Shown here piece by piece: positions 694-23,701 of a DNA stretch of 64,000 nt. The notes under the pieces were generated by a model that ran no database searches, was not told the origin of the DNA, and worked only from the letters and a program-made list of their open reading frames with translations. Source of the stretch: Breoghania sp. L-A4 (lineage in GTDB: Bacteria > Pseudomonadota > Alphaproteobacteria > Rhizobiales > Stappiaceae); the NCBI RefSeq assembly GCF_003432385.1, contig NZ_CP031841.1, forward strand, positions 3,139,579 through 3,203,578, in the 5' to 3' direction. Each line of letters opens with the position of its first letter. Position 1 is the stretch's first letter. The position numbers were made by a program, and so were the translations under genes.

Positions 694-3600
694 TCATGGG
701 TATTGTGTCTCCAAGGTCTGCGCGATGAGATCGCCCAGCGCAGAGCGACGGATGCGGCGTGCTTTTGCGTTCCAATCGACCACGAGACCGATCGCCAAAA
801 GGTCAGGGCCGATCGTCTCCAGATCCTGCCCGATCTCCTCGCACATGAGTTCATCAAGCGCCTGATAATCATCTTTTTCCGCAACCTCAATCAAGCGCAG
901 CGCCTGACCAAGCGCTCCTTTGAAGAAGGAAACAGGGAGCTTCTCCGAGATGGCCCAGGTCCTGACAACTTCGGTAGGATCGCTCGCCAGAGACATCGCC
1001 CGAATGAGCTTGATCGTTTCGGTCGGCAACCCGCCGGTGGTTTCGAGGATGGCTTTTCGAAAAGCGGGAGTGTCAAGATCGGTTTTTTCGATTTGCTGCA
1101 AATGAGCCCGGACCATCTCCCCGCCCCAAGCCGAAAGGAACTGGGCTTGGTCCTTGCGGCGACTGGCGAGCCCGCGCATGTCCTCATCGGCGGCATCGAG
1201 AATGACCACCGGACGGACTTGGTTTTCAACAACCCGGGGCTGGCGTTCGATCCAAGCCAATTCCTCAGCCGCCTCCTGCGGTGATGCAGGTGTGTGAACC
1301 ACTAGGGACATGCATCGATCAACAGCCGCCGGGCCACCAATCAGCGTGCCCAACTCCTTGCGCGATGTCACGACATGGACGGTGATATCGTCCTTCGGCG
1401 CTCCGGGTAGCCGGCCGATCGCGGCAATCTGTTTCAGGGCCGCGCCGACTTTTGACAAGCCGAGAATTTCGAGCCCGCATACGATTTGCATCGGGACCGC
1501 ATTAGGGTCAACAATGCGTTCGATCTGGAGATCAGTGAGCGGAGCATAGGGCCATTCCTGCTGGTTGTACCCGTGGTGGCCGGCAGGCGCATAACGCCGA
1601 CGGTGGATCGCCCTATCGTAGGAGATGGTCGGGTCACGCTCTACGATTTCGAGCAGCGCATGATCGATATCTTCCTCGGAGCCGAGCATCGCCGCAACCT
1701 GTCGGGTGCGGAGCAGGTAGGTGTGGCGGTTTGTGTTCGGGATAGGCACTCGTCCAAGCACACCGAGGTCGAAGAGTTCCTGGAGCAGCGCGTCGAACGA
1801 CGCCTGAGACGGATGCTCGGCGGTTTTGGGCCAGAACGTCAGGGTCTCAAGGAGAAGCTCGCTTGGCCTAAAGCCGGTTACCAGTGACTGCTGTTCGTTG
1901 CCTTCTATGTTCAGGCGGGCCAGCGTGTATGCGACAAGAGCGTAGCGAGGATCGAGCTCGAGTGTCCAGTGGAACTTTTGCCGAATGCGGGTCTCGATGG
2001 CATGGAAGCCGCGATGAGCGAAGAGGCTTTCGGTCAGGATAACCCAAAGCGGCCCGTCATCGGAGAGGCGATAGGGCTTGCCACTGCCCGCACCGTGGAG
2101 CGTGGCGAGGAGCCCCTTGGAATATTCCTGGACGAGGCTCGGGTAGTAATTCGCCCAGGCGAGGATCGCCTCGACCGCCTCCAATGACTCGAAGCGGAAA
2201 CCTGCTGCCCGCATCGGCTCCACCACGAGGTCGTGGGCCACGCGCTTGTCATCCTCCGTCCGGTTCAATGGGCCAATACAGATAGGCTGACCAAGGTGAG
2301 CAAGCGGCGAGTTCGGCTGCTTATCCATCCGTTGCACGTTGTGAAGTCCTGCGAAGACCACCTTGAACGCGCGTCCGGTGTCTTCCATCAACTCCTTGAG
2401 ACGGCTCAACTCGGGATAGTCGTCCTTCGTGTCAGCGGCCATGAAATGATCGGTCTCGTCGAACATGCACACGATTTGCCCCTGCGGATGGGTCATAATC
2501 CATGCTCGGATATCGTGGCTGATGGCATCGGCTGTTCGGCTGGCGGGTTTGACCACATCGTAGGGCGAGAGCATCGCGCTGAGATGGGACCAGATCTCGA
2601 AGGTTCTTTCGGCGTTGCCGAGAGACTTGACCTCGCGCTTGAGCACAATGCGGCTCTGCGCGGGCGCGTTGCAGGTAGTCGAAATGTGGTTGAGAAGTGC
2701 TGACTTGCCGAGTTGGCGGCCACCGTAGACCAGGCAACCATCGGCGGTCTTCGACATGATATTACGGATCTCTTCCTCGCGCCCGAAGAACATCTCCTCC
2801 GGCACGGTCGCAGCGTCGGTGACGTACGGCTCCACACGGCCGTAGGGCAGGCCGCACTCGAAGATCGTTTTCGCCCGAGTGTCGCGCTGGGTGGCAGTAA
2901 AGGCAACGAGGGCCTCGTCGATCAGAAGCGCCGGGATGGCATTTGCGCGCAGGCGTTTTGCATATTCGTGACGCCTGGCGAGATCCGCAACGCCCAAGAA
3001 CAGCAGGATGGCCGGCATCTCGGAAGAGACTGCTTTTAAGATGGCTTCAGGCAGTGTTTCGGGTCCGATGATAAGAAGATGGTAGCCTGCGGTCGCCTTC
3101 GATCCGAAGACCGGAGGGAGGAACCAGTTGCCCGACTTGGACTCGATCTTTGCGGAAATCGTTGCATGCCAGGAATTAGTGCGGCCAAGCGATTGCAGGT
3201 TGTGGGTTTTGAAGTTCTCGAAGCCAATTTCCTCGAAGAATTCGCGGACTTTCGATACCAACGGTTTTTTAAGACGTATCGAGCGCGCAATGTCGAGGTA
3301 CAGGCCGACAAAATCGGTACCTGCAGCGCGACGGTCTTCTTCGAGGAAAAGCGGGCCCATGATCTCAAATGCCGCCTTGTAGGCGTCGATTGATTTTGGC
3401 CAATCCGGTCCGATGGCCTGGCTGACGAAACCGGGAGTGAATTCCTTCAAAAGCCCTTCCAGTTCGGTTTCGAAAGTCGCCGCGGAACGGCCATCGCGGA
3501 GCTGGGCGATGCGATCCTCGACCGCTTCGATCGTAAGATCGTCGATGGCGGAGAGAAGCGCATTCGCCTCGTCGACGTTTTGCTCCGTGCAATATTGGTT

Positions 3601-6600
3601 TATCCGTTCAGCCTGATCGAGCCGGATGTTGGCTTCAATCGCCCCCGAAACCTCATCAAGTTCGCGGATGTGAGCGGGGATATCGGCAAGATCATGAACC
3701 TCGGCCCCGTCCCTGATCGCGGTGAGGCGATCGAGAGCGATGCTGCACCAATTCAGGTTTCTCGCGATTTTCTCCTGATGCTTGTGGTCCACTTTGGCGA
3801 GCGTCTTGAGGCGGCGTTCGCGCCGTTCCACCTCGACGCGCCAGATATCGGAGAATGCAGCCATGTCCTGCCGGATATCCTCGCTCGCATCGATGCCGAA
3901 CCTAGCCGCAAGGCGGGCCGCCGTATCGAAAGCCGCTTCTTCCCGGGAGCGAAGAAGAGCTGTTTCCGGCTCCGGAATTCCGGAGCCGAGTAAAACCTCG
4001 GTGAGTGCATCGAAGCGCTCCTCGGGGTCGTCCAGTGCTCCGCGGGTCGCTGCAGGGAGCAGGTCGCGCTCGGCGCTGAGGGCCTCTTCGAGGGTCGTGA
4101 AGGTGCCGGTATCGGCTCCTTCCAGGGCGTGACGCGCCTCATCGATCTGGAGCGCAATCCAGTGGGCGACGGCGCAGCGTAGCGGGTCTCCCCCCTGGTC
4201 TGCATCCTCGCGCAACGCGCGCGCAGCCTTTTCGAAGCGGGATTGAAGATTACTAATGGTTCTGCGTAGGCGGGCCTCGGACTTTTGGCTATGCGTGCCT
4301 TCGCGCTCGGCAGCCCTGACCCAACTGTCGAGCAGCCCAAGGGGTTCGTCGAATTGACGATCAAGGTACTCGATTCCCTTAGGATAAAGGCGTGCACCGC
4401 CGTGTCCGGTTTCGGTTGCGAATTCAATCGAGCGAGCCTCGATTTCGGACTGCGTCTTGAGCTGAGATATGGCTTTGCGGGCCAAGCGAACTGCATCCTT
4501 GGAGTTTGCTGCGATTGCGGCCCGCGCAGCTCCGATCAGCCCGTTATCGGAAACCACATGATGCAAGAAATACGTCGCGAAATGCCAGCGAGAGGTCTTT
4601 TGAGAGAATAGCAGGCACCACTCGTCGAGCTGGTCCGAGATCCGTTTTCTCTGCGGAACGCTCTGTGCTCCGGAAATCCGGGCGAGTTCGTCGGCGGCGG
4701 GCGGGAAGTCATAGTCGAGCGCAGCAATCGCACCGGCCGCTTCCTGGAGATGTTTTCCCAAAGCCCCGCGCGCGCGCTGAAGCAGTCCCGCCCGGTAAGC
4801 CGAGGATTGTTCGAGAATGGCAGGACGGACAAGCGCGCCCAGTAGCATGACCGAGCCGAGGTCGCCAAGTTGGAGCGAGGTTGCGCGAGAGGTGATCGTC
4901 AGGAAGCGCTGCGAATCTTGGCCATATTCCCGATGAGGACCTCGGCAGCCAGCCGCCGCGCGAAGAACGGGAGCCTCGATCGGCCATACGAACCCTTCTG
5001 CCTCGAAGGCCTCAGCTGCATCCGCGGCAATACCGACCAAGTCGCGCGAGATCAAGGCGGCGAGAACGTCCGAGCCGACCGGAGCCGGCGACGCGCCGCC
5101 TTGCGGAGGTTGGCTATCGCCGTTTTCCGCGATGACATAGCGAGAGAGACCGGATGCGAGGGTCTCCTGTTGCTGGGTTTGGGGTGCCTCGGTCAGCGCC
5201 TCAACCGTCACAGTTTCCGTTTCGTGCCCCACTGCGTCTGCGTGCACTCCCTCCTTCTTAACGGAGACATCATCCGTCGATTCAGAGGCTGCGCAGTCAA
5301 TGCCACCAGTTTTCACCGGCACCCCGTGAGCTTCTTCATTTATCTCACCGCTATCCTGCGGCTGGGCATCTTCGTGGTCTGTGTCGCTGTCAGCCTTATA
5401 GCTCGCTTCCAGAGCTGCGATTGCCGCCTCAGCTGTCGGTTGGTCCGCAACTCGGTTTACTTGGCTGTCGATCCTTTCGGCTATTGGCGCTTCGATGTCT
5501 TCGGCGTCGTGTGCGGTTGACTCGATCTCCATTCGCATGCCTTCGGGCAGGACGTCGATTGCCGCGATCTCTCCTTCAACGACCGATCGAACCCCTCTCA
5601 TGCGACGTTCGTGGTTGTCGCGCAGTTCCGAAAGCCTCGCCTTTGTCTCGCGGGCCTGCGTCGCGAGTTCTGCCAGCAATTCGAAGTTCTCAGTTTCGTT
5701 AGCTTCCTTGATCCGGCCCCGCAACTCTCCCGATGCTTGCTCAAGATCGATGATGTATTTCGCTACGTACTCGATTTCTCTGAGCACTCCGCTGGCATTC
5801 AATTTGCGAAGAATGGACGCAGTCTGATCGTTGACCTGAATCGCTTCAGCATCGATTCCGATCGCGTTTAGTTGAAATAGGAGAGCATCAATGGATACTT
5901 GGGAAGTTTTCGCAGCCTGGTCGGACGCAAGCAAAGCAAGATTGGAAACGAGATCGAATTCGTCCGGTCCGCTGGAGATATCGAGGTCGGCGGCCAGGCT
6001 GTGAAGCGTTGAGACCAAGTGCTGTTGCACCAAGGATGATGCCAGGTCTGGATGTTCCGTGGCGGTGGCAATGAGTTTGTGCCCGTGAGCCGGCCAGTTG
6101 TCCACGTCATCGAGATCGCCAAGTATCTCTTGGGCGGATTCCTGCCGGGTATTCGCCTGGGTCAGATGCGCGTAGGCCATCGCGACGACTTTGTCGCCGT
6201 CATGCGTGTCGACACGGCGGAAATAGGCCTCGATCGCATATTCGCAGAAGGCGGCGACAGCAATGTCGGCCGCCATCTGTCCCTCAGCTCTTAACTCAAG
6301 AACCCGATCCTGTAGGGTGGGGTTGTTCTTCAGTCGTAGCTTGGAGAGAGGGAGCTTGGTAAGGATATGCTTTGCCTTTTCGCGACGGCGGGGGCTCGGA
6401 AGCCCATTGGCTTTCAGGCGACGTTCGCTGACCGCGACCTCGATGATCGGCAAGGTCCATGGTGCGGGCTCGACGCGGTCGAGAAGCGCATCGTAGACGG
6501 CCGCAGGTTCCTTGGGGTCTACGTCTATCTGAAGGTAGTCGACGAGAGAGCGCAGGTCGCGCACAGAGAAATGCTTGGCTGCCACGAGGAAGTCGACGAC

Positions 6601-6780
6601 ATCGGGGCTGACCGCTCGAAGCGGGAACGGCCCAAAGCTTTTCGGAGGCTCCCATCCCGTCTTTTTCCAATCCGCCATCGTGAGGCTCGCGGGTGGAACC
6701 TTCTGTACGGTCATAACAGCCGTCTGGCTATTGCGTTTGAAATCTGAGAGAACGGCTTCAGACTTGAACTCGCTTGTCAT
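694..6780 (-). CDS. Giant P-loop ATPase (2028 aa), third gene of a defence-like operon
   Basis: Function unknown; probably the ATPase/regulatory component of an anti-phage operon. The N-terminal third is helical with a coiled coil at roughly residues 345-420, followed by a long acidic, low-complexity linker (about 460-570). The C-terminal half holds an AAA/STAND-like nucleotide-binding domain: FFGREEEI just before Walker A, Walker A YGGRQLGKSALL (about 1350-1361), and Walker B VCMFDETDHFM (about 1435-1445). The region after Walker B resembles the ATPase_2/AAA_16 type with a winged-helix tail. No nuclease, protease or TIR motif was recognised. The gene starts 22 bases after the helicase stop, so co-transcription is likely. 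Length and the absence of membrane segments point to a large cytosolic complex. Family assignment beyond 'P-loop ATPase' is not possible from inspection. Confidence 0.7.
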   Translation of the reverse strand: MTSEFKSEAVLSDFKRNSQTAVMTVQKVPPASLTMADWKKTGWEPPKSFGPFPLRAVSPDVVDFLVAAKHFSVRDLRSLVDYLQIDVDPKEPAAVYDALLDRVEPAPWTLPIIEVAVSERRLKANGLPSPRRREKAKHILTKLPLSKLRLKNNPTLQDRVLELRAEGQMAADIAVAAFCEYAIEAYFRRVDTHDGDKVVAMAYAHLTQANTRQESAQEILGDLDDVDNWPAHGHKLIATATEHPDLASSLVQQHLVSTLHSLAADLDISSGPDEFDLVSNLALLASDQAAKTSQVSIDALLFQLNAIGIDAEAIQVNDQTASILRKLNASGVLREIEYVAKYIIDLEQASGELRGRIKEANETENFELLAELATQARETKARLSELRDNHERRMRGVRSVVEGEIAAIDVLPEGMRMEIESTAHDAEDIEAPIAERIDSQVNRVADQPTAEAAIAALEASYKADSDTDHEDAQPQDSGEINEEAHGVPVKTGGIDCAASESTDDVSVKKEGVHADAVGHETETVTVEALTEAPQTQQQETLASGLSRYVIAENGDSQPPQGGASPAPVGSDVLAALISRDLVGIAADAAEAFEAEGFVWPIEAPVLRAAAGCRGPHREYGQDSQRFLTITSRATSLQLGDLGSVMLLGALVRPAILEQSSAYRAGLLQRARGALGKHLQEAAGAIAALDYDFPPAADELARISGAQSVPQRKRISDQLDEWCLLFSQKTSRWHFATYFLHHVVSDNGLIGAARAAIAANSKDAVRLARKAISQLKTQSEIEARSIEFATETGHGGARLYPKGIEYLDRQFDEPLGLLDSWVRAAEREGTHSQKSEARLRRTISNLQSRFEKAARALREDADQGGDPLRCAVAHWIALQIDEARHALEGADTGTFTTLEEALSAERDLLPAATRGALDDPEERFDALTEVLLGSGIPEPETALLRSREEAAFDTAARLAARFGIDASEDIRQDMAAFSDIWRVEVERRERRLKTLAKVDHKHQEKIARNLNWCSIALDRLTAIRDGAEVHDLADIPAHIRELDEVSGAIEANIRLDQAERINQYCTEQNVDEANALLSAIDDLTIEAVEDRIAQLRDGRSAATFETELEGLLKEFTPGFVSQAIGPDWPKSIDAYKAAFEIMGPLFLEEDRRAAGTDFVGLYLDIARSIRLKKPLVSKVREFFEEIGFENFKTHNLQSLGRTNSWHATISAKIESKSGNWFLPPVFGSKATAGYHLLIIGPETLPEAILKAVSSEMPAILLFLGVADLARRHEYAKRLRANAIPALLIDEALVAFTATQRDTRAKTIFECGLPYGRVEPYVTDAATVPEEMFFGREEEIRNIMSKTADGCLVYGGRQLGKSALLNHISTTCNAPAQSRIVLKREVKSLGNAERTFEIWSHLSAMLSPYDVVKPASRTADAISHDIRAWIMTHPQGQIVCMFDETDHFMAADTKDDYPELSRLKELMEDTGRAFKVVFAGLHNVQRMDKQPNSPLAHLGQPICIGPLNRTEDDKRVAHDLVVEPMRAAGFRFESLEAVEAILAWANYYPSLVQEYSKGLLATLHGAGSGKPYRLSDDGPLWVILTESLFAHRGFHAIETRIRQKFHWTLELDPRYALVAYTLARLNIEGNEQQSLVTGFRPSELLLETLTFWPKTAEHPSQASFDALLQELFDLGVLGRVPIPNTNRHTYLLRTRQVAAMLGSEEDIDHALLEIVERDPTISYDRAIHRRRYAPAGHHGYNQQEWPYAPLTDLQIERIVDPNAVPMQIVCGLEILGLSKVGAALKQIAAIGRLPGAPKDDITVHVVTSRKELGTLIGGPAAVDRCMSLVVHTPASPQEAAEELAWIERQPRVVENQVRPVVILDAADEDMRGLASRRKDQAQFLSAWGGEMVRAHLQQIEKTDLDTPAFRKAILETTGGLPTETIKLIRAMSLASDPTEVVRTWAISEKLPVSFFKGALGQALRLIEVAEKDDYQALDELMCEEIGQDLETIGPDLLAIGLVVDWNAKARRIRRSALGDLIAQTLETQYP

Positions 6781-6802
6781 CGTGTTGGTCTTTCCGCCTT
6801 AA

Positions 6803-9800
6803 TTAGGCATTCCACTTGAGATCAACCTTTTCTCCGGAACTTATCAGGATCGACTCGATCCAGGCCAATGCCGGACGACGCTCGAAATCCGGCCAGAACC
6901 TCTGGTTGGAGTAATCGTTCAGGCACCGCGTGCAACTGCTGACGCAGTCGGGGTTGAGGCAATCAAGGATCTTACGGGCGGCGAGCAAAAGATCGGCGGC
7001 GCGGAACCCGTCTTCGCGGGTCAGTCGGGTAGCGTATCCCGCCCCGCCCGAGACCGAATCGTAGAGCACGACGACGAGATGGCCGTTCAGTCGCTGGATG
7101 AGCCCACGCAGATCGCGCGGATCGGTTTCGAGCAGATCGGCCGCTCCGAGCCTGAGCGCCTCTTGGAGAGTGCGATCAAGACTTGTACCCGTCGGGAGGC
7201 TAGATCCGTCGGGCGCACGCGGGAATCCCTCGAAGAGCAGCCCGCGGACATCGGTTTCGAACACATGCGCCAGGTCGACGGGATAGACCCGCTCACCGGG
7301 ATCGGAGCGACAGGAGAGACCTGTGCGCGGGTTCGAGTGGGCCTCGAGTGCCACAGGGTCTTGCCACCCAAGTTCCGGCCCTATGCCGAGCGCCGGTACG
7401 GCGTATTCGCAATTGCGGCACCAGGCAAAGCCGCCACGGTGTCTGCCGCGGTTAACTGTAATGATGCGACCGAGTTCGTGATCCGGCCGATTGGACCCGG
7501 GAGCGTGGAAGGTCAGGATTCCGGGAAGATCGGTTGCCGTGTACCGGTGCAGCGGCGCTTCGGTAAGGAGCAGCGCTTCATCCGACACGGTTGGCCGCAG
7601 GCGGCTCGCGCCGGGGTCGCGCCCCTGGCCGTCAGCAACGGAGGTCAGGAAGCCATGTGGGCGAATGAAGTCCCGAGTTCTGTTGATCTTGATGAACTGA
7701 ACGCCGCACTGGTGGCAGGTGTCTTCGGGCTCCATGCCCTGCATAGTAACCTGGGGCGAACGGCAGGCCTCGCAGACCCGGTATCGAGCGCGATCGATGA
7801 AGGCATCGTCACCGGTGAACTTCGATCGCTTCGATATACCGTCACTCGTCCAGACACGTCCGCCGGCCACGACCTCGGCACCCGGCGAATATTCTGAGAT
7901 CCCGATCGATCCATCCCGGTCGAGCTCGAGGATCGAGGAGTCAGCAGTCTGCCCGGCCGAGTTCAGGACTTCGAGCGATACGGAATGGACTGGGAAGGAA
8001 TAGGTCGGAATCACGGCACGACGGGACAGTTGATCGACCAGGAACTGGTTCATGTAGAGGCGCTGTTGCGTCCGCAAGGCACCTAGGGACCGGTCGACCT
8101 TCTGGAACTGATCGGCGGCGGTCCGGTTCAGGGCAGCGCGGCGTTCCTCGAGATCGTCGATGGCCTCCTGCATCACCCCCCATCGGCCCCAGATCGCGTC
8201 GGCAAAGCGTGTAAAGCGCTGGTTCATGGTGGCGCGCAGGCCATCGGCGTCGAGGGCAATATCCGCAAGGGCCTCCGGGAGCCTGTCTCCTAGCCGGGCC
8301 GCTGCTTCGATCTCCCGGTCAGCGCCGGTAAGCCACACTGCGAAGTCGCGATCGAAATCCGAGCGCGCCTCCGGGGTGAGGGCTTCTGCAAAAACGTCGC
8401 GCAGCCGCGGCGATCCAGGACGGCTGTAGGCCTTTAGACGGTATTCGAGAAACCGCGCCAAGATCATCGAGAGCTGGTGGCGCTGGAAGAAACCGGCGTT
8501 GTTGAGGCTGAGGTAAGGAATGATGGGTTGGGCCGAGAGATATTCGGAGAAACCCTCGTAGACTGCGCGATCGAAACGCCCGGATCGGGCGGACGTGAGG
8601 ACGATCGGGGCGACCTGTGCGCGCCGGCCGGCCCGGCCCGCACGCTGCTGGTAGTTTGCTATCGAGGGCGGAACGTTTTTGCATAGCACCGCCTCGAGAT
8701 CGCCGAGATCGACCCCCATCTCCATCGTGGTGGTGCAGGACAACAGGTTCACCTCGCCTGCCTTGAAACTCTCTTCAATTGCCGTCCGGATTTCGCCGGC
8801 AATGGCTGCGGTGTGCTCTCGGGCGATCCCCATCAGGGGGTGCGCATTGTAGCGCACGACATAGTGGTTACGTTTCGCGAGATCCTGTCGTTCGGCCTCG
8901 ATGATTTCGCGCAACTGCCCGTCGCATCCCATCGACTGGCAAACCCCTGCGGTGTCGAACTGGGTGCGGCCACCACAGGACAGGCACTGGTAGAGCCTGA
9001 CATCCCGGCCGGGCACAACAAAGAGGGATTTGTCGAGCCTGAGGGCGCGCCCGACGCCATGCTTGGAGGTCATGGACCTCGGATGTTCGATGGCCTTCCA
9101 GAAATGTGTGAGCACATCGCGGATCTGGTTGTCGTCGATCGCGGTGCCGCATGTTTTCGCCATCTTCCGAAGCAGGGCAGTGAAACGGTTCTGGTGCCCC
9201 GCCACCGGCACGAGCGTCAGAGATAGCGTCGCGTTGGGGTTCTTTTCACGCGTGATGCAACGGCCTTTCTGGCTGGCGATCCGCGTCCAGATCGACTCGT
9301 CCATGAGATCGATCATACCGGAGTCCTTGTCGGCGATCGCGCGATGCTCGCGGATCATCTTGAGCAGATAGCGCACGAAGGCTTCGGCATGGTCCTTCAT
9401 TGCCTCCGGCAACATCTTGCGAACAGCGAGCACGGGACGATCGATCTGTTCGTAATCGATCCCGATGAGACCGAACCCTTCGAGGCTGAGGCGGCCACGC
9501 CCGAAGACGGTGATCTCGGCCGCGATAAGGGCCTTGAGACGGAGTAACTCGTTGGGACCGGTTTCGAGCTCGGGCATCACGCCGGGGCGGTAGAGCCTCA
9601 GCCCATCAACTCGCAATTCGCGTGCGACGGCTCCGGCAAGATTGTCGATATCGGTCTTTCCGCTGGCCCCTACGGCGCGCAGCACAGCACTTCGGATGGC
9701 TTGCTCCCGAGAGGTACGCTCGAAGAAGGGCGCGAAGAATGCAGCATCCTGCCTATTGTCGGAAAAGACCAGGAGGTTGCGCCCGCCCATTGGCGGGGTT

Positions 9801-11743
9801 TGTCCGGTTTCCTTCTTCGGGAGAGCCTCAAGCAGAGTCTGCGCAACGACAGCGGCGATGGCCTCATCGCCCGGGCGCACGGTCGTGACCGGCTCTAGGT
9901 GACGGTTAGAGCGGTGGTTGCAGGCCGCACAGCGCGGAAGGTAGCGCGTGCCGTCGTCGGGGTCCTCACGCAAGGGGATGTCCTCGAGGACGACCGATCC
10001 GACTTCGTCGGGCTCCATCGGCCGTCCCGTCAGGGGATCGATATGGACGATCTGGCCGGGCCCGTCGCCGGGCGTGTCGGACTCCTCTTCCGCCGCCATA
10101 CCGCCAGGGATAAGCCTCAAAAGGTGACGCCGGCCAGATCCCGGCGTCGGGTTGAGTTCAATGGGACCTTCCCAGGCTTCGATGTACGGCTCTCCGCAGT
10201 TTCGGCAGACAAACAGCTCGTAGGCAGGTCGATCGTCCGAACCGAATTCGGATCCGATTACGACCTCGCCCAGGTTTTCGGGGGCTTCGGATTTCAGAGT
10301 TACGCCAGTCCTGTCCGGGGAGCGTGAAATCAAGTGATATCTTGCTGGCAGGAGCGGGAAGACTGCGGCATCCCTGCTGATGGCGAGTACCCCCACCGCG
10401 ATCAGCCCAGTTAGGGCAGATATCGCGTCTGACTCGGCATCTGGAAAGACATTGCGGGCCAATGTCCTGATTGCGACAGCTCCACTTTCGAGGCGCCGAG
10501 CGATCCGATGAACCTCTTCGAAAGAGGCAAGTTTGGCGATCAGGGAATCGCCCAGAGAGGTAGCGTCGTCCAGCTGGAGTTCGGGAAGTTCGAGAAGGCC
10601 CGCCTCGAAGTTCCAGTCCTCGATCGACATGGGCGTGTCGTTTTGAGACGCTTCGCCCGCAGCAGCCGCGAGCTTGCCGGCTTCTGCCCACTGGTGTGAG
10701 GAGAGGCCGCTGGCAATGGGAGCATCGACGAGACTCGGATGAGGCTTCTTTTTCGAGGTGATGACAGATTTCTCGCCGCCGAACGGTTCGCCAAAGAGCC
10801 GCGATGCGAAGTCCGCAAGCTCCACCTTGCGACTGGGATCAAGCGAAGCGGAGGTACCGACACAACGGATCGTGCCGTCCGGAATTCCGAGGTGTGCCTT
10901 GAGACGTCGAAGCAGGAAGGCGACCTCGATCGCCTGTGCACCAGCATAAGTGTGGATTTCGTCGAGGACGATCCAACGGAGATCCGCACCGGAAAGGAGC
11001 TGGCAATTAGTCGGCAACAGCAGGATGTGCTCAAGCATGGCATAGTTCGTGATCAGGATATGCGGAGGCCCGGCGCGCATCTCTGATCGCGAAAGGAGCC
11101 AGTTGTCTGAAACATCCGCATCTTCTCCGAAGCTTTCGATGAAGCTATGCGACGAGCGAAGGCGGGTTATCTCCTCCCCGCGGGTCGCGCGGGGTTTGAT
11201 CTGACCAGTATAGCGGCCAAGGGTAATGCCGGGATCGCAGAGATCGCGAAAAAGGAGTTCGGCAATGCGGCTGAGCTGATCGTTAGCCAGTGCGTTGAGC
11301 GGGTAGACGAGAATCGCTCGGACGCCGGGCCGCTTCAGGTCGCCCTGGGCAAGAATGTCGTTGACGAGGGGGTAAAGGAAGCTCTCGGTCTTCCCCGAGC
11401 CGGTGCCGGTGGCCACCAAGTAGTTGTCGTCTCGCAGAATGGCCTGCTCCTGATGGGAGTGAAGCTGGCGCGTCCAGACGGAGGGCGTGGCCTGCGCAAA
11501 GGCCGCCCAGTCTGGATCGAGAATGCCACTGGCGTGAAGTTCCGAGAGACTGCGGGCCTTCTCGAAGTCGGGCAGGGTCTCGACATAGGGTCCCTTGACG
11601 AATTCGAGAAGGCTGATGCTTGTGCGCAGATCCTTGGCCAGGTGGGGCGCCCGGATCTCATTGATCGGCGACGAGGTCGCAACGAACCGCGCGAGGGTGC
11701 GGTTCAGGTGATCGCGGAAGATGTTGGGATCGAGATTGGTCAT
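6803..11743 (-). CDS. DEAH-box helicase with DUF1998-type zinc-rich C-terminus (1646 aa)
   Basis: Superfamily 2 helicase. Motif I is ATGTGSGKTES (residues 111-121), motif II is DEIH (261-264), motif III is GTSAS (296-300), and motif VI is QQRAGRAGRR in the second RecA lobe. The second half has repeated Cys-x2-Cys pairs (CRNC, CAAC, CLSC, CEAC/CHQC, CRNC) and ends with the SGGAGY...CLNPDCVSSCTRCL block typical of DUF1998 helicases. Fused helicase-DUF1998 proteins include MrfA (repair) and DruE (Druantia defence); in DISARM the same parts are split between DrmA and DrmB. The start ATG overlaps the stop of the upstream gene (ATGA), and GGAAGG precedes it. Flanking giant genes of unknown function and nearby mobile DNA favour a defence role over housekeeping repair; this is inference. 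Confidence 0.85.
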   Translation of the reverse strand: MTNLDPNIFRDHLNRTLARFVATSSPINEIRAPHLAKDLRTSISLLEFVKGPYVETLPDFEKARSLSELHASGILDPDWAAFAQATPSVWTRQLHSHQEQAILRDDNYLVATGTGSGKTESFLYPLVNDILAQGDLKRPGVRAILVYPLNALANDQLSRIAELLFRDLCDPGITLGRYTGQIKPRATRGEEITRLRSSHSFIESFGEDADVSDNWLLSRSEMRAGPPHILITNYAMLEHILLLPTNCQLLSGADLRWIVLDEIHTYAGAQAIEVAFLLRRLKAHLGIPDGTIRCVGTSASLDPSRKVELADFASRLFGEPFGGEKSVITSKKKPHPSLVDAPIASGLSSHQWAEAGKLAAAAGEASQNDTPMSIEDWNFEAGLLELPELQLDDATSLGDSLIAKLASFEEVHRIARRLESGAVAIRTLARNVFPDAESDAISALTGLIAVGVLAISRDAAVFPLLPARYHLISRSPDRTGVTLKSEAPENLGEVVIGSEFGSDDRPAYELFVCRNCGEPYIEAWEGPIELNPTPGSGRRHLLRLIPGGMAAEEESDTPGDGPGQIVHIDPLTGRPMEPDEVGSVVLEDIPLREDPDDGTRYLPRCAACNHRSNRHLEPVTTVRPGDEAIAAVVAQTLLEALPKKETGQTPPMGGRNLLVFSDNRQDAAFFAPFFERTSREQAIRSAVLRAVGASGKTDIDNLAGAVARELRVDGLRLYRPGVMPELETGPNELLRLKALIAAEITVFGRGRLSLEGFGLIGIDYEQIDRPVLAVRKMLPEAMKDHAEAFVRYLLKMIREHRAIADKDSGMIDLMDESIWTRIASQKGRCITREKNPNATLSLTLVPVAGHQNRFTALLRKMAKTCGTAIDDNQIRDVLTHFWKAIEHPRSMTSKHGVGRALRLDKSLFVVPGRDVRLYQCLSCGGRTQFDTAGVCQSMGCDGQLREIIEAERQDLAKRNHYVVRYNAHPLMGIAREHTAAIAGEIRTAIEESFKAGEVNLLSCTTTMEMGVDLGDLEAVLCKNVPPSIANYQQRAGRAGRRAQVAPIVLTSARSGRFDRAVYEGFSEYLSAQPIIPYLSLNNAGFFQRHQLSMILARFLEYRLKAYSRPGSPRLRDVFAEALTPEARSDFDRDFAVWLTGADREIEAAARLGDRLPEALADIALDADGLRATMNQRFTRFADAIWGRWGVMQEAIDDLEERRAALNRTAADQFQKVDRSLGALRTQQRLYMNQFLVDQLSRRAVIPTYSFPVHSVSLEVLNSAGQTADSSILELDRDGSIGISEYSPGAEVVAGGRVWTSDGISKRSKFTGDDAFIDRARYRVCEACRSPQVTMQGMEPEDTCHQCGVQFIKINRTRDFIRPHGFLTSVADGQGRDPGASRLRPTVSDEALLLTEAPLHRYTATDLPGILTFHAPGSNRPDHELGRIITVNRGRHRGGFAWCRNCEYAVPALGIGPELGWQDPVALEAHSNPRTGLSCRSDPGERVYPVDLAHVFETDVRGLLFEGFPRAPDGSSLPTGTSLDRTLQEALRLGAADLLETDPRDLRGLIQRLNGHLVVVLYDSVSGGAGYATRLTREDGFRAADLLLAARKILDCLNPDCVSSCTRCLNDYSNQRFWPDFERRPALAWIESILISSGEKVDLKWNA

Positions 11744-14700
11744 GCGGAGACCTTCCGGAGCTGTTCGGCGTGGGACCAGAGCGCGCGGAAATGAACGAAG
11801 AACTCGATGCCGGCCCGCAGCATCATTGTGAGTGTTTGGCCGATCTCCTGACGCGGCAGGCCCGTGCGGAATTCGACGTTGTCGATGAACGCGTCTGCGC
11901 GCTGACCCGCGCAGGCACGGGCAAACCGTTCGATCCCGGCTGCCAGCCTGGCTGGGAAGAGATCGCCGCCACCTCCGCTATCGAAAGATCGCAACGCCTC
12001 GAGTCCCTCGATGTGGGGTTGGCAGATCACGGCGACGGCACTGCCGATATGACCGTTGCCGGCGAGACAACGCAGGTCGGTTTCGCGGAGCCGAAAGCGG
12101 AGCGCTCTGAAGGCGTGGCTGAGGGAGGTTGCGTCGAGCCCCTGGGGCAGCTCTGTATCCGAACTCACCCGGTCCAGCCAATCGGAGAGGGGGGTGTCGC
12201 CCGCAGGGTCCGGAGGTGCTGCGGGGACCCCAATGGACGCCATGTGGGCGAGACTGGAGAGGCCGCTGGCTTCTTCGAGGCCGGAATAGGCTGAAAGCGG
12301 GGCCTGGAAGATCCACGGGGCTACACCCACGAGATCGTTTCGCGGCGGCTGGCCATCAGCCCGGTGAACGTTCAGCACGGGCCGAATGGCGCCGATCATG
12401 TGCGTGGTGCCGGCGACTCCGAGAGCCTGGCGGTAGGAAGGTCCTAGGGCAGCGGAAAGTTGGCCGCCAAGCGCCTCAGCCTCCGGCTCGGCCAAAAAGC
12501 CTGCAAGCCGGGACGCTGAGCGACGATCGGAGGCATTGATAGACCCGGCCAGACCGATCGCGATCTGTGCTTCTGCTGCATCGCAGAGAGGTGCGAAAGT
12601 GCGATCCTTCTCGTTTCTAACCCAAAAGCGGACCCGGGCTGGCGCGGGCAGGATAGTTCGGAGAAGTCGAACAGAGATGCGACCGCTGTCGAGTTCGCTC
12701 GTGACATCGACACCCCCTAACGGCGACAGGGATACCGGGAAACGTCCGAACGCAAACTCACCCTGGAGGACGCTCCCGTCAACGCTCTCGACCTTCACGT
12801 GGAGCGCGTCGCACCGACGCTGCAGCAGTAGGGACAGGTCTATGCAGTTCTCGTCCTCGGTGAGCGAGATTTCAGCGGGGTCAGCCACGCGCCGGAGGCG
12901 GGCGAGTATGTCGATATGGCCGTTTGCGCGCCGCAGCGCAATCCGATCATCGCCCTCAACTGTAGCCTCAAGATCCTCGGCTCCGATCTCGAGCGACTGT
13001 CGGGTAAGGAAAGGTCTGCGTTTTTCCCGACCCAGTACAAGAAGATCGGCATCGCGATCAGATGACCGCAGCCGAAATGTGTCGTGCCGGGCGTCATGGC
13101 CGAACACGAGCACTTTGCCCTTGGGCACGAAGATGCGGTCGTCGGTGGAGATCCGGCAATGCCAGAGTTTCTCGCCGCGGGCCGCAAGGTGGAATTCACG
13201 CCTGATCTTATCGTCGTAAAGGCTGAGGATCGGCGTCTCGGCGTCTGCCCGCGGATCGACGGAAAGCTTTCCACCTTCGCATCGTAATCCGGCACTTCGG
13301 GACGCGTCGAAATTTGATGGGAGATCCACGTCGCAGAGGTCGCCGTCGGGCGCAGGCACGCCACACCAAATCCAGCAGGACGTCGATAGCTCCGCCCGGG
13401 CATTTAGATCGCCTGCGGCACCTGGGGCCAGGACTTCAAAGACCACATGCCGCGGATCTCCCGCTTCCCCGAGGCCAAATCGATAGAAGGGAAGACGGGC
13501 AAAGCCGTCTGCTCCGACTTCGATACTGAGGAAGCGCACATCCTTCGCCATGCGAGCGCGAACGATGCGTTTGGCCCCGCCGATTTCCGGGTCGATCCTC
13601 AGGATAAGGGCCCCATCGCATGCATAGAGCGGCTGAGGGCCGTCCCGGCCAAGTGTGACTGCGTCGAGCCAGAGCGCTGCCTCGTCAGGTTTTTGCAAAG
13701 TGATGTCGGCGCGGCCGTCGAAAACAAGTGTTTCTGTTGCTTCGACCCATGCGACGTAGATATCGAGATCCCTGGATGGAATCGCGTCGCCGAAAGAGGC
13801 GCAGGAGAACGAAACTCGACTGAGAACGACAAGTCTTTCCGCAGCGATCTCGGCGAGGGTATCGTCCCGACCAAGCCGAGTGAGAAAAGCTCCACTATCT
13901 GCATCGAAGAGAAGGACATTGCCTGGGCCAGGAGCAAAAGCGATCTGCTGGCGAATGTTGCCGCAGCTCCAAGTCAGATCATCTGGCCAAGGTGCCGGTA
14001 TGTGAACATGGTTGCCGCCCGACACAAGTATTGGAAAGGCCCCAATATGGACGCGTTGAGGAAGCCGCGATGCTTCTGCCTCGAGCGCAAGGTTATCCCT
14101 CGCCCAGTAGAGGCGAGGTGGCCCGACGAGTTCGCCGCGGCTACGGCCAAAGCTGCGCGCCGCGGCATCGAAGGCGTCGAACAGATGTTTCTCGGATGTA
14201 CCCGAGGCGCTTTTGCCCTGGCGCCATGCCTCGAACCGCCTGGCGCAATATGCCGAGGTATCGAAGTTGATGGTCGCCCGGAGACGGGTGAAAGTGGGAC
14301 AGTGCTCGGCGACGGCACGTCTTTGCCAGTGGCGGGCCGAAGGCGTGTCTTCGATCGCCGGAGGTCCCAAATACAACGCCGCGCCAACAAACGCGCGTGC
14401 AAGCTCTGCGTGCTGGGAGCGAACGGGACCCAGTGGCGCAAAAAAGAGTTCCGTTGGCTGATTGCCTGAAACCGGTATGCCGAGGCGCCTCGCGGCGCGC
14501 CGGAAGCAGGACTTCAAGAGGTCCCGAGAGAAGGCATCGGAATAGTCCTCATTTACGAACTTACTAATGTGGAGATAGACGTCTTTCGTGCTGGCGCCGT
14601 AACTCTCCGACAGTGGCGCCATGACGGCCCAAACGGCAAGAGTCGGGCAGTTTTCGAAAAGGCGGAACAGGTCGGCCTTTCGGACAATCCTTTCCGCTCT

Positions 14701-14847
14701 GCTTCGAATGTCGTGAGGAACACGGACATCAACGAGGAACGGTGTTGAGCTCCCGCCGGTCCACGAGGAATGGAAAGCCGCCTCGACCTCGGATACACTC
14801 CGTGGTGAAAGTTCAAAGTCCATCCCCTCTTCAATATTTGAAGCCAC
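11740..14847 (-). CDS. Uncharacterised 1035-aa protein, first gene of the defence-like operon
   Basis: Not recognised as a known family. The start is GTG at 14847, chosen because GGAGGAA lies eight bases upstream; the in-frame ATG at 14823 lacks a comparable site. The N-terminal 250 residues are helical; the middle (about 270-800) alternates short hydrophobic strands with charged turns, suggesting beta-rich repeat domains; the C-terminus is helical again. No P-loop, nuclease or membrane motif is visible. It overlaps the helicase by four bases (ATGA), so the two are translationally coupled. Druantia type III pairs a large protein without known domains (DruH) with the helicase DruE, so a DruH-like role is possible, but no sequence similarity could be tested. 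Confidence 0.65.
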   Translation of the reverse strand: MASNIEEGMDFELSPRSVSEVEAAFHSSWTGGSSTPFLVDVRVPHDIRSRAERIVRKADLFRLFENCPTLAVWAVMAPLSESYGASTKDVYLHISKFVNEDYSDAFSRDLLKSCFRRAARRLGIPVSGNQPTELFFAPLGPVRSQHAELARAFVGAALYLGPPAIEDTPSARHWQRRAVAEHCPTFTRLRATINFDTSAYCARRFEAWRQGKSASGTSEKHLFDAFDAAARSFGRSRGELVGPPRLYWARDNLALEAEASRLPQRVHIGAFPILVSGGNHVHIPAPWPDDLTWSCGNIRQQIAFAPGPGNVLLFDADSGAFLTRLGRDDTLAEIAAERLVVLSRVSFSCASFGDAIPSRDLDIYVAWVEATETLVFDGRADITLQKPDEAALWLDAVTLGRDGPQPLYACDGALILRIDPEIGGAKRIVRARMAKDVRFLSIEVGADGFARLPFYRFGLGEAGDPRHVVFEVLAPGAAGDLNARAELSTSCWIWCGVPAPDGDLCDVDLPSNFDASRSAGLRCEGGKLSVDPRADAETPILSLYDDKIRREFHLAARGEKLWHCRISTDDRIFVPKGKVLVFGHDARHDTFRLRSSDRDADLLVLGREKRRPFLTRQSLEIGAEDLEATVEGDDRIALRRANGHIDILARLRRVADPAEISLTEDENCIDLSLLLQRRCDALHVKVESVDGSVLQGEFAFGRFPVSLSPLGGVDVTSELDSGRISVRLLRTILPAPARVRFWVRNEKDRTFAPLCDAAEAQIAIGLAGSINASDRRSASRLAGFLAEPEAEALGGQLSAALGPSYRQALGVAGTTHMIGAIRPVLNVHRADGQPPRNDLVGVAPWIFQAPLSAYSGLEEASGLSSLAHMASIGVPAAPPDPAGDTPLSDWLDRVSSDTELPQGLDATSLSHAFRALRFRLRETDLRCLAGNGHIGSAVAVICQPHIEGLEALRSFDSGGGGDLFPARLAAGIERFARACAGQRADAFIDNVEFRTGLPRQEIGQTLTMMLRAGIEFFVHFRALWSHAEQLRKVSA

Positions 14848-15037
14848 TAGGCCTTCCTCCAGCTCTTATTTGGACCAGCATCGGCCATATTCGGCAATAC
14901 AAAAAACTTGATGTGGTCAGACTTTGTCACGGTCTTGTAGCTGGACTAATCCTAGGGCAAACGTGATTGGGAGAAAGTGATTTAATCAAGCTGCGCGAAC
15001 TGTTTTGGAATTCGTGCGGTATTGAATTTACTCCTAG

Positions 15038-15054
15038 CATTGCAGTTGCAATTT
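15038..15054 (+). repeat. Left terminal inverted repeat of the IS701-family element
   Basis: CATTGCAGTTGCAATTT pairs with the complement of 16434-16450 with two mismatches. It lies 47 bases before the transposase ATG. Confidence 0.8.
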
Positions 15055-15100
15055 GAAGTGAGTTCTGAATCGATGGGTGACCATGATTCGGAGGTCATGG

Positions 15101-16448
15101 ATGATGGGTGCATCGATTGAAGAGAAACTGGAGATTTGGGCGTCCTCGTTGCGCGACGTGAAGGGGCGCATGCGCGGATTGTTCACGCAAGAGCGCGTTG
15201 CCACATCGGCGAACCTGTTTCTGGACGGCTTGCTCGGGGACGAGCGCCGCAAGACAGGTTGGATGCGGGCGAGGCGGCTGACGATCCCGGGCCGTGGCGA
15301 CAGCAGGCCATTTTGGGCCGGGGGCGTTGGGACGCGGACGGGTTGCGCGATATCGTGCGCAATTATGTTGTCGAGAACCTGGCCGCAGACGACGCGGTCT
15401 TGGTGATCGATGAGACCGGGTTCCTCAAGCAGGGCAAGGCATCCTGTGGTGTTGCGCGCCAATATACCGGTTCGGCCGGTAAGATTACGAACTGCCAGAT
15501 CGGTGTGTTCGCCGCCTACGTGTCCGCTCGCGGTCGCGCCTTTATCGATCGCGCTTTGTACTTGCCCAAGAGCTGGGCCGGCGATCCCGCGCGATGCCGC
15601 GCGACCCATGTCCCTGAAGCTGTAGCTTTTGCTGCCAAATCGGCGCTGGCTGTTCAAATGATCCGTCGAGCGCTGACGGCAGATGTGCCTTTTTCCTGGG
15701 TTGCGGCGGATGCGGTGTATGGCGTCGGCGATGTCGAACAGGCCCTGCGCCGAGCCTGCAAAGGCTATGTCCTCGGAGTCAGATCGGACCACCACTTCGG
15801 CTCTTGGGTGGGCAAGCCTCCGGTCGCCGGCACCGCCGGGGAAATCGCACAAGACCTCGAACCAGACACATGGCTGCGTCTCTCCGCCGGTGAAGGCACC
15901 AAAGGCGCCCGGCTCCATGACTGGGCCTATTGCGAACTCGCCGATCTCGACGCTGACGAATATGACCAGACCAAATCAGGTCTTTGGACCCGCGGGCCGC
16001 TGATCCACCGCAATATCAGCGACGGTGATCTCGCCTTCTTCACGACATGGTGCCCAGCCGGCACGAGCATCCAGGCCCTGGTCGCCGTCGAAGGCCACCA
16101 GTGGGCGATCGAAGACAGCTTCGAGACTGCCAAGAACGAGTTCGGCCTCGACCACAACGAAACCCGGTCTTGGCATGGATGGCACCGCCACGTCTCTCTG
16201 GTCATGCTCGCCTTCGCGATGATGGCGGTGATCCGATACCGCGCCAACGACAGGACGCCACCCAAAAAAACCAGGACACGGACCAGCAAGACCTGATCCG
16301 TTGGTCGATCCAGGAAGTCCGGCGTATCGCCAACAAGCTTGCCCAGCGTCGTATCCAGCCCTCCTATGTCATCGCATGGTCATGCTGGAGACGCGCACAT
16401 CAAGCCACTGCCAGACGCGCTCATATCAAAACTAAAATGCAACTGTAA
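15101..16448 (+). pseudogene. IS701-family DDE transposase with two frameshifts
   Basis: The N-terminus (MMGASIEEKLEIWASSL...) starts at 15101 in one frame. Near 15273 a G appears to be missing (family sequence GWMRAEAA versus GCGAGGCG here) and homology continues in the next frame through the catalytic region. DDE residues are visible: VIDETGFLKQG (first Asp), WVAADAVYG (second Asp) and WAIEDSFETAKNEFG (Glu). A second break at the A7 run near 16280 moves the C-terminal 50 residues (DLIRWSIQEVRRIANKLAQR) to a third frame. With an internal break before the catalytic core the gene is probably inactive, unless the first break is a sequencing error. Confidence 0.8.
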
Positions 16449-16526: not shown

Positions 16527-16955
16527 CTAGTGCAGTCCCACGAATTCGCTAGTGTCCTGGACAAACCGTTGAGGCGGCACCAGACAGAGTTTGGTGCCGG
16601 TCGTAATCCCGTAACGCTGCCGCTGAGCTGCCAGCACGTCGCCAAGCACGCCCGTCACTTCGCCGTAGGCGATGTGCCAACGCAGGCCGATATCAACCAT
16701 CTGTGACAGCGTGAACTTGCCGCGAAAGTCGCACTCGGCCAGGTTCCATGCGAACCGTTTCCAACGCTGCTTGATCAACCGGACGAAGGCCGTCGTCTCC
16801 GCCTCGTCATAGCCCAGCTTTGTCAGGTCCAACTGCGGATTATCCTCGGTGATGTATTGCAACATCCGCCCGGGCGTGACGTTGATCAGCCTGGCGAACT
16901 CGCCCTTCGAGACGAGGGTCTCTTCGGCCAGGGGCTCACCACGTCCAAACCCCAC
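16527..16955 (-). CDS. Phage-type protein with N-terminal helix-turn-helix (142 aa)
   Basis: Residues about 12-40 (LVSKGEFARLINVTPGRMLQ) resemble the DNA-binding helix-turn-helix at the start of phage terminase small subunits of the Nu1 type, which in related prophages follow the replication genes. The remaining 100 residues (KQRWKRFAWNLAECDFRGKF and onward) are not recognised and may come from a recombination event next to the IS. It is the last gene of the minus-strand prophage block before the IS701 element. A terminase role is a guess; it may be a hybrid remnant. Confidence 0.45.
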   Translation of the reverse strand: MGFGRGEPLAEETLVSKGEFARLINVTPGRMLQYITEDNPQLDLTKLGYDEAETTAFVRLIKQRWKRFAWNLAECDFRGKFTLSQMVDIGLRWHIAYGEVTGVLGDVLAAQRQRYGITTGTKLCLVPPQRFVQDTSEFVGLH

Positions 16956-17299
16956 GCTGTTTAGCCATTCACTTTAGCTCTTTAGGCTTTGCGTTTCGTG
17001 TCAGACTGGCGAGATCCTGCGCGGCCGCGCCCCCGCAGGTGGTTTGGGCGGATACGGTCCCTAAATCCGGGGGACCCGCCTGCCCTCGCCGCGCTATGAC
17101 CAATGCCGCCCAGATTGAGGCTGCGGTGGCCATCCTTGCCCCTGTCTGGACCCACAGGAGACCCGGCAGGACCGGCAGGGGGTGCTTCGCGTGCCGGCCC
17201 TGCTCCCCTCGCCTGTCCTGTCGCGGCAGGACCGCCCGATGAGACCACTGGCGCGGGCATCGCGCCCTTGCCGGTTCTTTAGCACCTCAACCGCTGAGT
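16956..17299. other. Gene-free GC-rich interval
   Basis: This 344-base stretch lies between two minus-strand prophage genes. Short frames exist on both strands but have arginine/proline/glycine-rich translations without ribosome-binding sites, as expected for GC-rich noncoding DNA. No hairpin terminator or repeat was found. Confidence 0.5.
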
Positions 17300-17992: not shown

Positions 17993-18036
17993 CGTGTGCC
18001 GCTCCATGGTTTCATCATCGCCTGCAAATTCCCGGT

Positions 18037-21503: not shown

Positions 21504-21556
21504 GGGCGGGCCTCCAGCGACTCGGCGAAGCGGATCAAAAATTCGGCGCTCACCAT
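21500..21556 (-). CDS. Possible 18-aa leader-like ORF in the overlap chain
   Basis: ATG at 21556 lies across the stop of the 72-aa gene, and its own TGA at 21500-21502 overlaps the next ATG. It may only serve to pass ribosomes from one gene to the next. Too short to judge coding potential otherwise. Confidence 0.35.
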   Translation of the reverse strand: MVSAEFLIRFAESLEARP

Positions 21557-23689: not shown

Positions 23690-23701
23690 GCAATCACAAA
23701 T

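What the first reader, a model, noticed from the sequence alone, without database searches (positions are those of the whole stretch)
694..14847. Three giant coupled genes form a defence-like operon not matching a known type
Seen: a 1035-aa unknown protein, a 1646-aa DEAH helicase with DUF1998-like cysteine-rich end, and a 2028-aa P-loop ATPase, linked by an ATGA overlap and a 22-base gap, surrounded by insertion sequences and prophage DNA. Known: DUF1998 helicases define Druantia (DruE) and DISARM (DrmA/DrmB) and occur in the repair protein MrfA. Inference: the ATPase as third subunit and the lack of methyltransferase, PLD or DruA-D/M/F/G genes make this either a Druantia III-like variant with an extra ATPase or a separate system.
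Basis: partly seen in the sequence, partly recalled or inferred. Interest (0 to 1): 0.8.

Follow-up and report, generated by a model that had tools for sequence, protein, structure and literature searches.

The report
Druantia-like helicase operon with giant ATPase
Three very large neighbouring bacterial genes form a rare, conserved operon that looks like an unnamed relative of the Druantia anti-phage systems; its helicase has no nuclease tail and is followed instead by a giant ATPase whose relatives sit beside several other defence systems.

Summary
Three intact genes (1035, 1646, 2028 aa; minus strand, 694-14847) are coupled by an ATGA overlap and a 22-base gap. The trio recurs in the same order in a Salipiger contig, a nearly identical MAG contig and a third genome of the same class, and is decayed on a Sinorhizobium plasmid. 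All three genes show purifying selection. The helicase is YprA/Druantia-class but forms its own supported clade, separate from the Druantia I, Druantia III and ARMADA rows tested. The 1035-aa protein and the ATPase hit no family model at the cut-offs used. The 1035-aa protein is not detectably DruH by sequence, though a weak model shows a similar helical/Ig-like/helical layout. Two clade members keep a 360-410 aa helicase tail where the trio has 38 aa, and the two sister genomes searched whole lack the ATPase. So the ATPase was probably gained and the tail lost on the trio branch. Distant ATPase relatives sit beside DruH-DruE (twice), are fused to pPIWI-RE (once by Pfam, once by similarity), and precede a PLD-SNF2 helicase; in 8 of 11 such loci a HEPN-like gene follows, which the trio lacks. 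Verdict: a real, probably uncatalogued Druantia-like defence variant. Function is inferred; no effector nuclease was found.

The parts
11740..14847 (-). Gene 1: 1035-aa protein of unknown family (P0003), GTG start as listed; the true start is uncertain (L006/L007 alignments begin at residue 18)
   Evidence: no Pfam/PADLOC/NCBIfam hit (7-9). Homologues at 57-58% (L006, L007), 54% (L038/G1084), 25% (L020), 23% (L029), and G435. Low-confidence model: helical 15-240, beta 245-770, helical 772-1030
6803..11743 (-). Gene 2: 1646-aa YprA/Druantia-class SF2 helicase (P0002); ends 38 aa after the MZB zinc cysteines, no nuclease tail
11740..11743 (-). ATGA stop/start overlap between genes 1 and 2
   Evidence: the same 4-base overlap in L006 (3955-3958), L007 (3322-3325), L020 (3798-3801) and L038 (4551-4554)
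694..6780 (-). Gene 3: 2028-aa giant AAA+-type ATPase (P0001)
6781..6802 (-). 22-base gap with a ribosome-binding-like GGCGGAAAG between genes 2 and 3
2701..2724 (-). Walker A GGRQLGKS of the ATPase (aa 1353-1360); Walker B at aa 1437-1446
   Evidence: G-x-R-[QR]-x-G-K-[ST] in 10 of 10 aligned ATPase rows

Best explanation
The operon is a three-protein anti-phage (or anti-mobile-DNA) system of the Druantia-like class, in a clade not named in the sources I read. Most likely division of labour: the 1035-aa protein, helical at both ends with beta/Ig-like domains in the middle, is the recognition/regulatory subunit and plays the part DruH plays in Druantia III. The helicase loads on 3'-single-stranded ends of phage replication intermediates and unwinds them. 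The giant AAA+ ATPase, related to the ORC/RFC-like group, is a nucleotide switch or loader. It took the place of the helicase's C-terminal tail and couples recognition to the blocking or destruction of the DNA. Shown: operon, conservation, purifying selection, helicase class and motifs, short helicase end, ATPase family and its other contexts. Inferred: defence function, the role of each subunit, substrate, and the final effector activity (no nuclease recognised in any of the three proteins). My split: conserved functional unit about 0.95, defence about 0.85, this division of labour about 0.4.
For: Trio conserved in order and spacing in window, L006, L007 and L030/L038, decayed in L008. dN 0.16-0.44 against dS 1.1-1.95 for each gene in three pairwise comparisons. 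The seven best PADLOC hits of the helicase are DruE models; SF2 motifs and seven CxxC pairs. Tree: trio monophyletic (100/100) inside a 7-row clade (100/100) that holds none of the DruE1, cyanobacterial, DruE3 or ARMADA rows. Tail after MZB 38 aa in 4 of 4 trio helicases, 360 and 410 aa in L029 and G435; the L029 tail matches the C-terminal part of a ZorD1 model (helicase, Mrr-like nuclease; 8.3e-12). G435 and G681 have genes 1 and 2 but no ATPase genome-wide; the same profile does find it in G000, G1084 and G430. ATPase relatives beside DruH-DruE3 (L028/L042, L015), fused to pPIWI-RE (L010; same layout and similarity in L017), before a PLD-SNF2 helicase (L011). McrBC directly upstream of L029. 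Patchy: gene 1 in 2 of 385, helicase clade in 3 of 385, ATPase in 2 of 385 class genomes, own included. ATPase core profile finds Cdc6 at 4e-4; weak model resembles RFC/ORC/RuvB AAA+ (124). Ig-like domain in P0003 654-770. DruH/DruE roles: PMC13192584 sections 9 and 13.
Against: No experiment. No nuclease or other killing activity is recognisable, so the last step is unsupported. Both structure models are poor (pLDDT 52.9 and 48.7), and most Ig-like hits have Z under 8, which the tool says may mean only a common arrangement. P0003 shows no sequence link to DruH (hhalign probability 0.07%). Few independent lineages: L006 and L007 are 95% identical in the ATPase, so the intact trio rests on three lineages plus one relic. 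dS is near saturation. Tail loss with ATPase gain is one event on the tree, not a statistical association, and Pfam sees no nuclease in the L029 or G435 tails. The branching among Druantia types is unresolved (80/90), so the clade could still nest among them.
Confidence: 0.6

Rival explanations
1. It is a diverged Druantia III: gene 1 is DruH beyond sequence recognition, gene 2 is DruE that lost its PLD domains, and the ATPase is an accessory of the kind also seen beside true Druantia III loci.
For: Same gene order (about 1000-1100 aa protein, then helicase). P0003 model layout (helical, beta, helical) resembles the published DruH layout (PMC13192584 section 13). Giant ATPase next to DruH-DruE3 in L028/L042 and L015. 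PMC12458937 speaks of a 'Druantia Type III-like' branch whose helicases most often lack a nuclease. The tree does not firmly exclude nesting among Druantia types (80/90 fork).
Against: PADLOC DruH models do not hit P0003 (E<=0.01) or its relative in L029 (E<=0.05) but do hit L042 at 8.8e-58. Profile-profile P0003 family against DruH family 0.07%. Helicase outside the three-row DruE3 branch.
Confidence: 0.25
2. The ATPase is an independent neighbour (its own module) that happens to lie downstream of a two-gene Druantia-like system.
For: Of the nine ATPase loci compared with DruE3 and P0002, only L015 holds such a helicase. G435 and G681 have genes 1 and 2 without the ATPase. Its usual HEPN-like partner is missing here.
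Against: Tight coupling in 4 of 4 intact trio loci (22-base gap in the window; the listed ATPase start overlaps the helicase stop in L006, L007 and L030); similar divergence of all three genes; short helicase end on the same branch.
Confidence: 0.2
3. DNA-repair operon, MrfA-like, not defence.
For: The YprA family with its MZB/DUF1998 domain includes the repair helicase MrfA (PMC12458937).
Against: Very patchy distribution, mobile surroundings, plasmid and defence-gene contexts of relatives, placement with Druantia/ARMADA references (no MrfA row was in the tree).
Confidence: 0.05
4. Mobile-element housekeeping: an ORC-like AAA+ ATPase plus helicase serving replication or transposition of an integrated element.
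For: ATPase resembles ORC/RFC-type AAA+; IS and phage genes nearby.
Against: The block shared by the trio loci is just the three genes, with no integrase, transposase or origin protein in it; relatives are coupled to pPIWI-RE and DruH-DruE.
Confidence: 0.05

Closest known systems
Druantia type III (DruH + DruE)
   Same: Order of a roughly 1000-1100 aa protein followed by a giant YprA-class helicase; a giant ATPase of the same family sits next to two DruH-DruE loci (L028, L015)
   Different: No DruH by sequence, no PLD tail, helicase in another clade, ATPase as coupled third gene
'Druantia Type III-like' branch of PMC12458937
   Same: Helicases there most often have no nuclease domain
   Different: The parts and passages I saw do not describe its partner genes, and the supplement was not available, so identity with the trio can be neither claimed nor excluded
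ARMADA I/II
   Same: YprA-class helicase in a multi-gene defence operon (PMC12458937)
   Different: No BrxHII-like helicase or PglX-like methylase in the trio; the tree separates it from three ARMADA-type rows
pPIWI-RE systems
   Same: The same giant ATPase is fused to a pPIWI-RE protein in Microvirga (L010, by Pfam) and apparently in G237 (L017, by layout and BLAST)
   Different: No pPIWI-RE Pfam hit in the three window proteins
Druantia IV / PADLOC DruE4
   Same: DruE-class helicase
   Different: P0002 scores only 301 bits to DruE4 and no DruF or DruL model hits genes 1 or 3 (definition from PMC8565338 passages)

Membership tests
YprA (MrfA-like) SF2 helicases | RecA1/RecA2 motifs plus C-terminal four-Cys MZB/DUF1998 | tested here: met
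Druantia type III | DruH encoded next to the helicase | tested here: not met
   no PADLOC DruH hit to P0003; hhalign 0.07%; homology visible only at fold level is left open
Druantia type III | DruE with two C-terminal PLD domains | tested here: not met
   38 aa after MZB; no PLD hit
Druantia type III | Helicase falls in the DruE3 clade | tested here: not met
   own clade 100/100; the three DruE3 rows form another (100/100)
Druantia types I, II, IV | DruA-D, DruM/F/G or DruF/DruL partners | tested here: not met
   PADLOC: no hit in P0001, P0003 or ORF 15034-15918; the 3' neighbour is a transposase. Genes further out were not scanned with PADLOC
[quoted passage not shown] helicase in the ARMADA clade | tested here: not met
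   no such partner in the trio; tree separates
DISARM | Split DrmA/DrmB, DrmC PLD protein, methylase | tested here: not met
   single-chain helicase; no PLD or methylase in the trio. No DISARM row was in the tree
Druantia-like defence (works like) | Blocks phage replication | not testable with these tools
   needs phage challenge
Giant AAA+ ATPase family described here | C-terminal core (839-position profile) with GxRxxGK[ST], hhhDE and [YF]xPxL[VIL]Q blocks | tested here: met
   window is a row of the profile, so its hit is by construction; BLAST links it to 7 other families members at E 1e-54 or better
ATPase + HEPN-like two-gene module | HEPN-like gene right after the ATPase | tested here: not met
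   not found around the trio loci (window with L016, L006, L007, L030 with L040/L041; L006 ends 385 bases after the ATPase), against 8 of 11 other ATPase loci

The most novel reading that the evidence does not exclude
A previously unnamed giant AAA+ ATPase, usually paired with a HEPN-like (predicted RNase) protein, is a portable module. It has been plugged into several DNA-targeting defence systems: DruH-DruE, pPIWI-RE, a PLD-SNF2 helicase, and the trio clade here. In the trio it replaced the nuclease tail of a Druantia-class helicase, giving a new Druantia-like type whose output is ATPase-driven rather than nuclease-driven.
Probability: 0.4. Interest if true: 0.75.

Novelty: new variant of a known kind. 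Interest (0 to 1): 0.6.

Why it matters
If right, it adds an uncatalogued type to the Druantia/ARMADA helicase systems in which no nuclease is recognisable, so how such helicases stop phages without one becomes directly testable. It also points to a giant ATPase family that PADLOC does not model (Pfam sees at most a generic AAA domain in it) and that recurs beside unrelated defence systems, so it could be used as bait to find more of them.

Tried and rejected
Sequence link of P0003 to DruH: hhalign of A1 and A6 against DruH gave probability 0.08 and 0.07%. The 6-row P0003 profile found nothing in PDB sequences at E<=5; A1 gave one chance hit at 0.33. P0001 against PDB: nothing with the 3-row profile, Cdc6 at 4e-4 with the 10-row core. 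Pfam at E<=0.1 gives only a sub-threshold AAA_16 (0.011) and ATPase_2 (0.05) at the P-loop of P0001; relatives L010 and L015 do pass the AAA_22 cut-off. Phage records: no P0001 relative. Viral contigs: no P0003 relative with A1, one ATPase and one helicase relative. Both structure models are poor, so fold searches carry little weight; DruH (9tud) is not among the 50 rows shown by Foldseek or VIA for P0003, which excludes nothing. HEPN-type R-[NHD]-x3-H in the trio proteins: one RDVLTH in P0002, none in P0001 or P0003. Small ORFs beside the trio: L030_293 looks like a transposase by eye (no call); ORF 15034-15918 has no family. Pfam finds no nuclease in the L029 or G435 helicase tails at E<=0.5, only chance-level hits, so 'nuclease tail' rests on one PADLOC ZorD1 match for L029 and on tail length. 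HEPN: of the 8 small proteins, two (L009, L065) were scanned at E<=0.5 and gave sub-threshold HEPN_Swt1; L010, L013, L015 and L028 were scanned at E<=0.01 and gave no HEPN hit. Papers: searches listed none that I recognised, from titles and abstract starts, as describing a giant ATPase with Druantia or pPIWI-RE; one returned 0 papers and 75 none on pPIWI-RE, so the library hardly covers it and this is weak evidence of absence.

Rows dropped before counts: of the 27 plasmid records with a P0001 relative I opened 8 regions, one of them the L008 relic. L032-L035 (short AAA-only matches, E 1.0e-25 to 2.9e-32) were left out of the context list. The 11 non-trio ATPase loci counted are L009-L015, L017, L028, L031 and L065; L012 (ATPase broken over two ORFs) and L031 (contig edge) are included.

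Full report
OBSERVATION. The three ORFs exist as described: 11740-14847 (1035 aa, GTG start), 6803-11743 (1646 aa) and 694-6780 (2028 aa), all on the minus strand. Genes 1 and 2 share ATGA, and a 22-base gap with a ribosome-site-like GGCGGAAAG separates genes 2 and 3. The window lies in a 5.03-Mb single-contig genome. An IS4/5-family transposase (two ORFs) ends about 60 bases beyond the 3' side of the window's first base, and phage genes begin at about 16.5 kb on the other side.

FAMILIES. Pfam finds DEAD, Helicase_C and MZB in gene 2 and nothing at E<=0.001 in genes 1 and 3; PADLOC and NCBIfam find nothing at E<=0.01 in genes 1 and 3. At E<=0.1 Pfam shows only sub-threshold generic matches in gene 3, among them AAA_16 at its P-loop (0.011). 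The seven best PADLOC hits of gene 2 are DruE models, but at between-type level: DruE1 523 bits, DruE3 516, DruE4 301. The DruE3 of Methylocystis scores 2208 against its own type and 524 against DruE1. Gene 2 keeps TGTGSGKT, DEIH, TSAS, QQRAGRAGR and seven CxxC pairs, and ends 38 aa after the last zinc cysteines. Gene 3 has one P-loop, and its core carries AAA+-like blocks aligned across 10 relatives. The 10-row profile finds Cdc6 at 4e-4, and a weak model (pLDDT 48.7) resembles several AAA+ proteins, among them RFC, ORC and RuvB.

CONSERVED TRIO. The same three genes in the same order lie in L007 (Salipiger thiooxidans) and L006 (a contig of a Chloroflexi MAG, 95% identical to L007 in the ATPase, so one lineage, perhaps misbinned). 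They also lie in L030/L038 (genome G1084, same class), with identities to the window of 54% (gene 1), 74% (gene 2) and 50% (gene 3). A Sinorhizobium medicae plasmid holds a relic: gene 1 in pieces, IS21 elements, and only the end of gene 3 (two records carry the gene-1 pieces). Between the three intact lineages dS is 1.1-1.95 (near saturation) and dN 0.16-0.44 for every gene, so all three are kept as proteins.

WIDER CLADE. Genes 1 and 2 also occur in L020/G681 (the contig ends inside the helicase), L029 (the contig ends 195 bases after it) and G435/L052. The ATPase profile finds nothing at E<=0.001 in the whole of G681, G435 or the L029 record; in searches with the same profile it rings in G000, G1084 and G430. 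L029 is a fragment and proves nothing; G681 and G435 are rated 100% complete. In L029 and G435 the helicase continues 360 and 410 aa after MZB; the G681 tail is beyond the contig end. The L029 tail matches the C-terminal part of a ZorD1 model described as helicase with Mrr-like nuclease (8.3e-12), but Pfam sees no nuclease in either tail. In a 17-row tree the four trio helicases are monophyletic (100/100) inside a 7-row clade (100/100), apart from two DruE1, two cyanobacterial, three DruE3 and three ARMADA rows. The DruE1 and ARMADA labels come from neighbouring genes in the records (DruA; helicase plus methylase) and are mine. The program warned of long branches among reference rows, the fork joining the other Druantia rows has only 80/90, and no DISARM, Dpd or MrfA row was included. 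The simplest reading is one change on the trio branch: tail lost, ATPase gained.

GENE 1 AND DruH. Profile comparison of six gene-1 relatives with six DruH gives 0.07%. PADLOC DruH models that recognise the DruH of L042 at 8.8e-58 miss L029's gene-1 relative. A low-confidence AlphaFold2 model (pLDDT 52.9, 4 sequences) is helical, then beta, then helical. Residues 654-770 look Ig-like (VIA Z up to 8.6, most rows under 8, which the tool says may be only a common arrangement). PMC13192584 section 13 (read) describes DruH as J-like/Ig-like with helical ends, a likely sensor with dimer-dependent nuclease activity. The resemblance is a lead, not a membership.

THE GIANT ATPase ELSEWHERE. Distant relatives of gene 3 (about 25-36% identity) sit beside other defence genes. 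DruH and DruE3 precede the ATPase in IMG/VR contig L028/L042 (helicase frame-broken, a 185-aa ORF between) and follow it in Methylocystis L015. In Microvirga (L010) the ATPase is fused to pPIWI-RE MID/RNaseH domains. L017 has the same gene layout and an N-terminal match to the L010 protein. In Brasilonema (L011) a PLD-SNF2 helicase follows. In 8 of 11 non-trio ATPase loci (L009, L010, L013, L015, L017, L028, L031 and the held-out L065) a homologous gene follows directly. It carries R-[NH]-x-x-A-H, which fits the HEPN Rx4-6H motif as described in PMC3710099 (passages), in 8 of 8. Pfam HEPN_Swt1 hits it below threshold in L009 and L065 (0.017, 0.018); four others scanned only to E 0.01 gave no HEPN hit. 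L010 and L065 add an AAA_33 domain, in L065 with a weak zeta-toxin match. L011, L012 and L014 and the trio loci gave no hit to this gene's profile. None of the ATPases given to PADLOC (window, L009, L013, L014, L015, L028) has a hit. Other ATPase loci hold no YprA helicase in view: of nine compared with DruE3 and P0002, only L015 does.

FREQUENCY (own genome counted in each). ATPase: 2 of 397 order genomes (single protein, 1e-5), 7 of 398 phylum genomes (profile, 1e-20; four of them short AAA-only matches), 2 of 385 class genomes (profile, 1e-30). Gene 1: 2 of 385 class genomes with the 3-row profile, which missed G435 (found with the 6-row profile). Helicase at E<=1e-60: 3 of 385. 27 of 72,556 plasmid records and no phage record hold an ATPase relative.

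MECHANISM. Inference, in order of support: a helicase acting on DNA (motifs shown); a recognition subunit (layout only); an AAA+ switch or loader (fold class suggested, role inferred); the final blow unknown. DruE of Druantia III prefers 3'-tailed DNA (PMC13192584 section 9, read). A mycobacterial DruH-DruE study reports blocked phage circularisation (PMC13316683, passages).

NOVELTY. PMC12458937 (first four of eight parts and passages seen) names DISARM, Dpd, Druantia, ARMADA, BRIGADE and TALON, and mentions a 'Druantia Type III-like' branch with mostly nuclease-free helicases. Its tables could not be read, so the trio helicases may already lie in that branch. In what I saw there is no ATPase third gene. 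I therefore file this as a new variant of a known kind.

Noticed in passing
L010:2136-18340 and L017:3190-18022: Four-gene loci: a REase/Y gene and a Z gene (Pfam in L010; same layout in L017), a pPIWI-RE protein fused to the giant ATPase, then a HEPN-like protein with a C-terminal AAA_33 domain (Pfam in L010).
   Followed up: partly
L009:16532-17686, L013:16550-17683, L028:12496-13494, L031:3230-4270, L015:16457-17593, L065:11977-13584: A HEPN-like gene with a conserved R-[NH]-x-x-A-H motif directly after the giant ATPase.
   Followed up: partly
L008:9637-17458: Relic of the trio on a Sinorhizobium medicae plasmid with IS21 genes beside and inside it, helicase gone.
   Followed up: partly
L006: Contig of a Chloroflexi MAG carries a trio 95% identical (ATPase) to that of Salipiger: recent transfer or misbinning.
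   Followed up: no
L029:3139-6554: McrB-like AAA_5 and McrC genes directly upstream of the gene-1/helicase pair on a contig classed as viral.
   Followed up: no
L015:1-27511: Methylocystis plasmid defence stretch: PLD protein, ZacC-type helicase, PD-DEXK, UvrD, giant ATPase, HEPN-like gene, DruH, DruE3.
   Followed up: partly
window 16527-24470: Phage genes: portal fragment, primase pair, CII-like activator, repressor.
   Followed up: no
L016:19159-19940 (ends about 60 bases before window position 1): IS4/5-family transposase in two ORFs at the 3' side of the operon.
   Followed up: no
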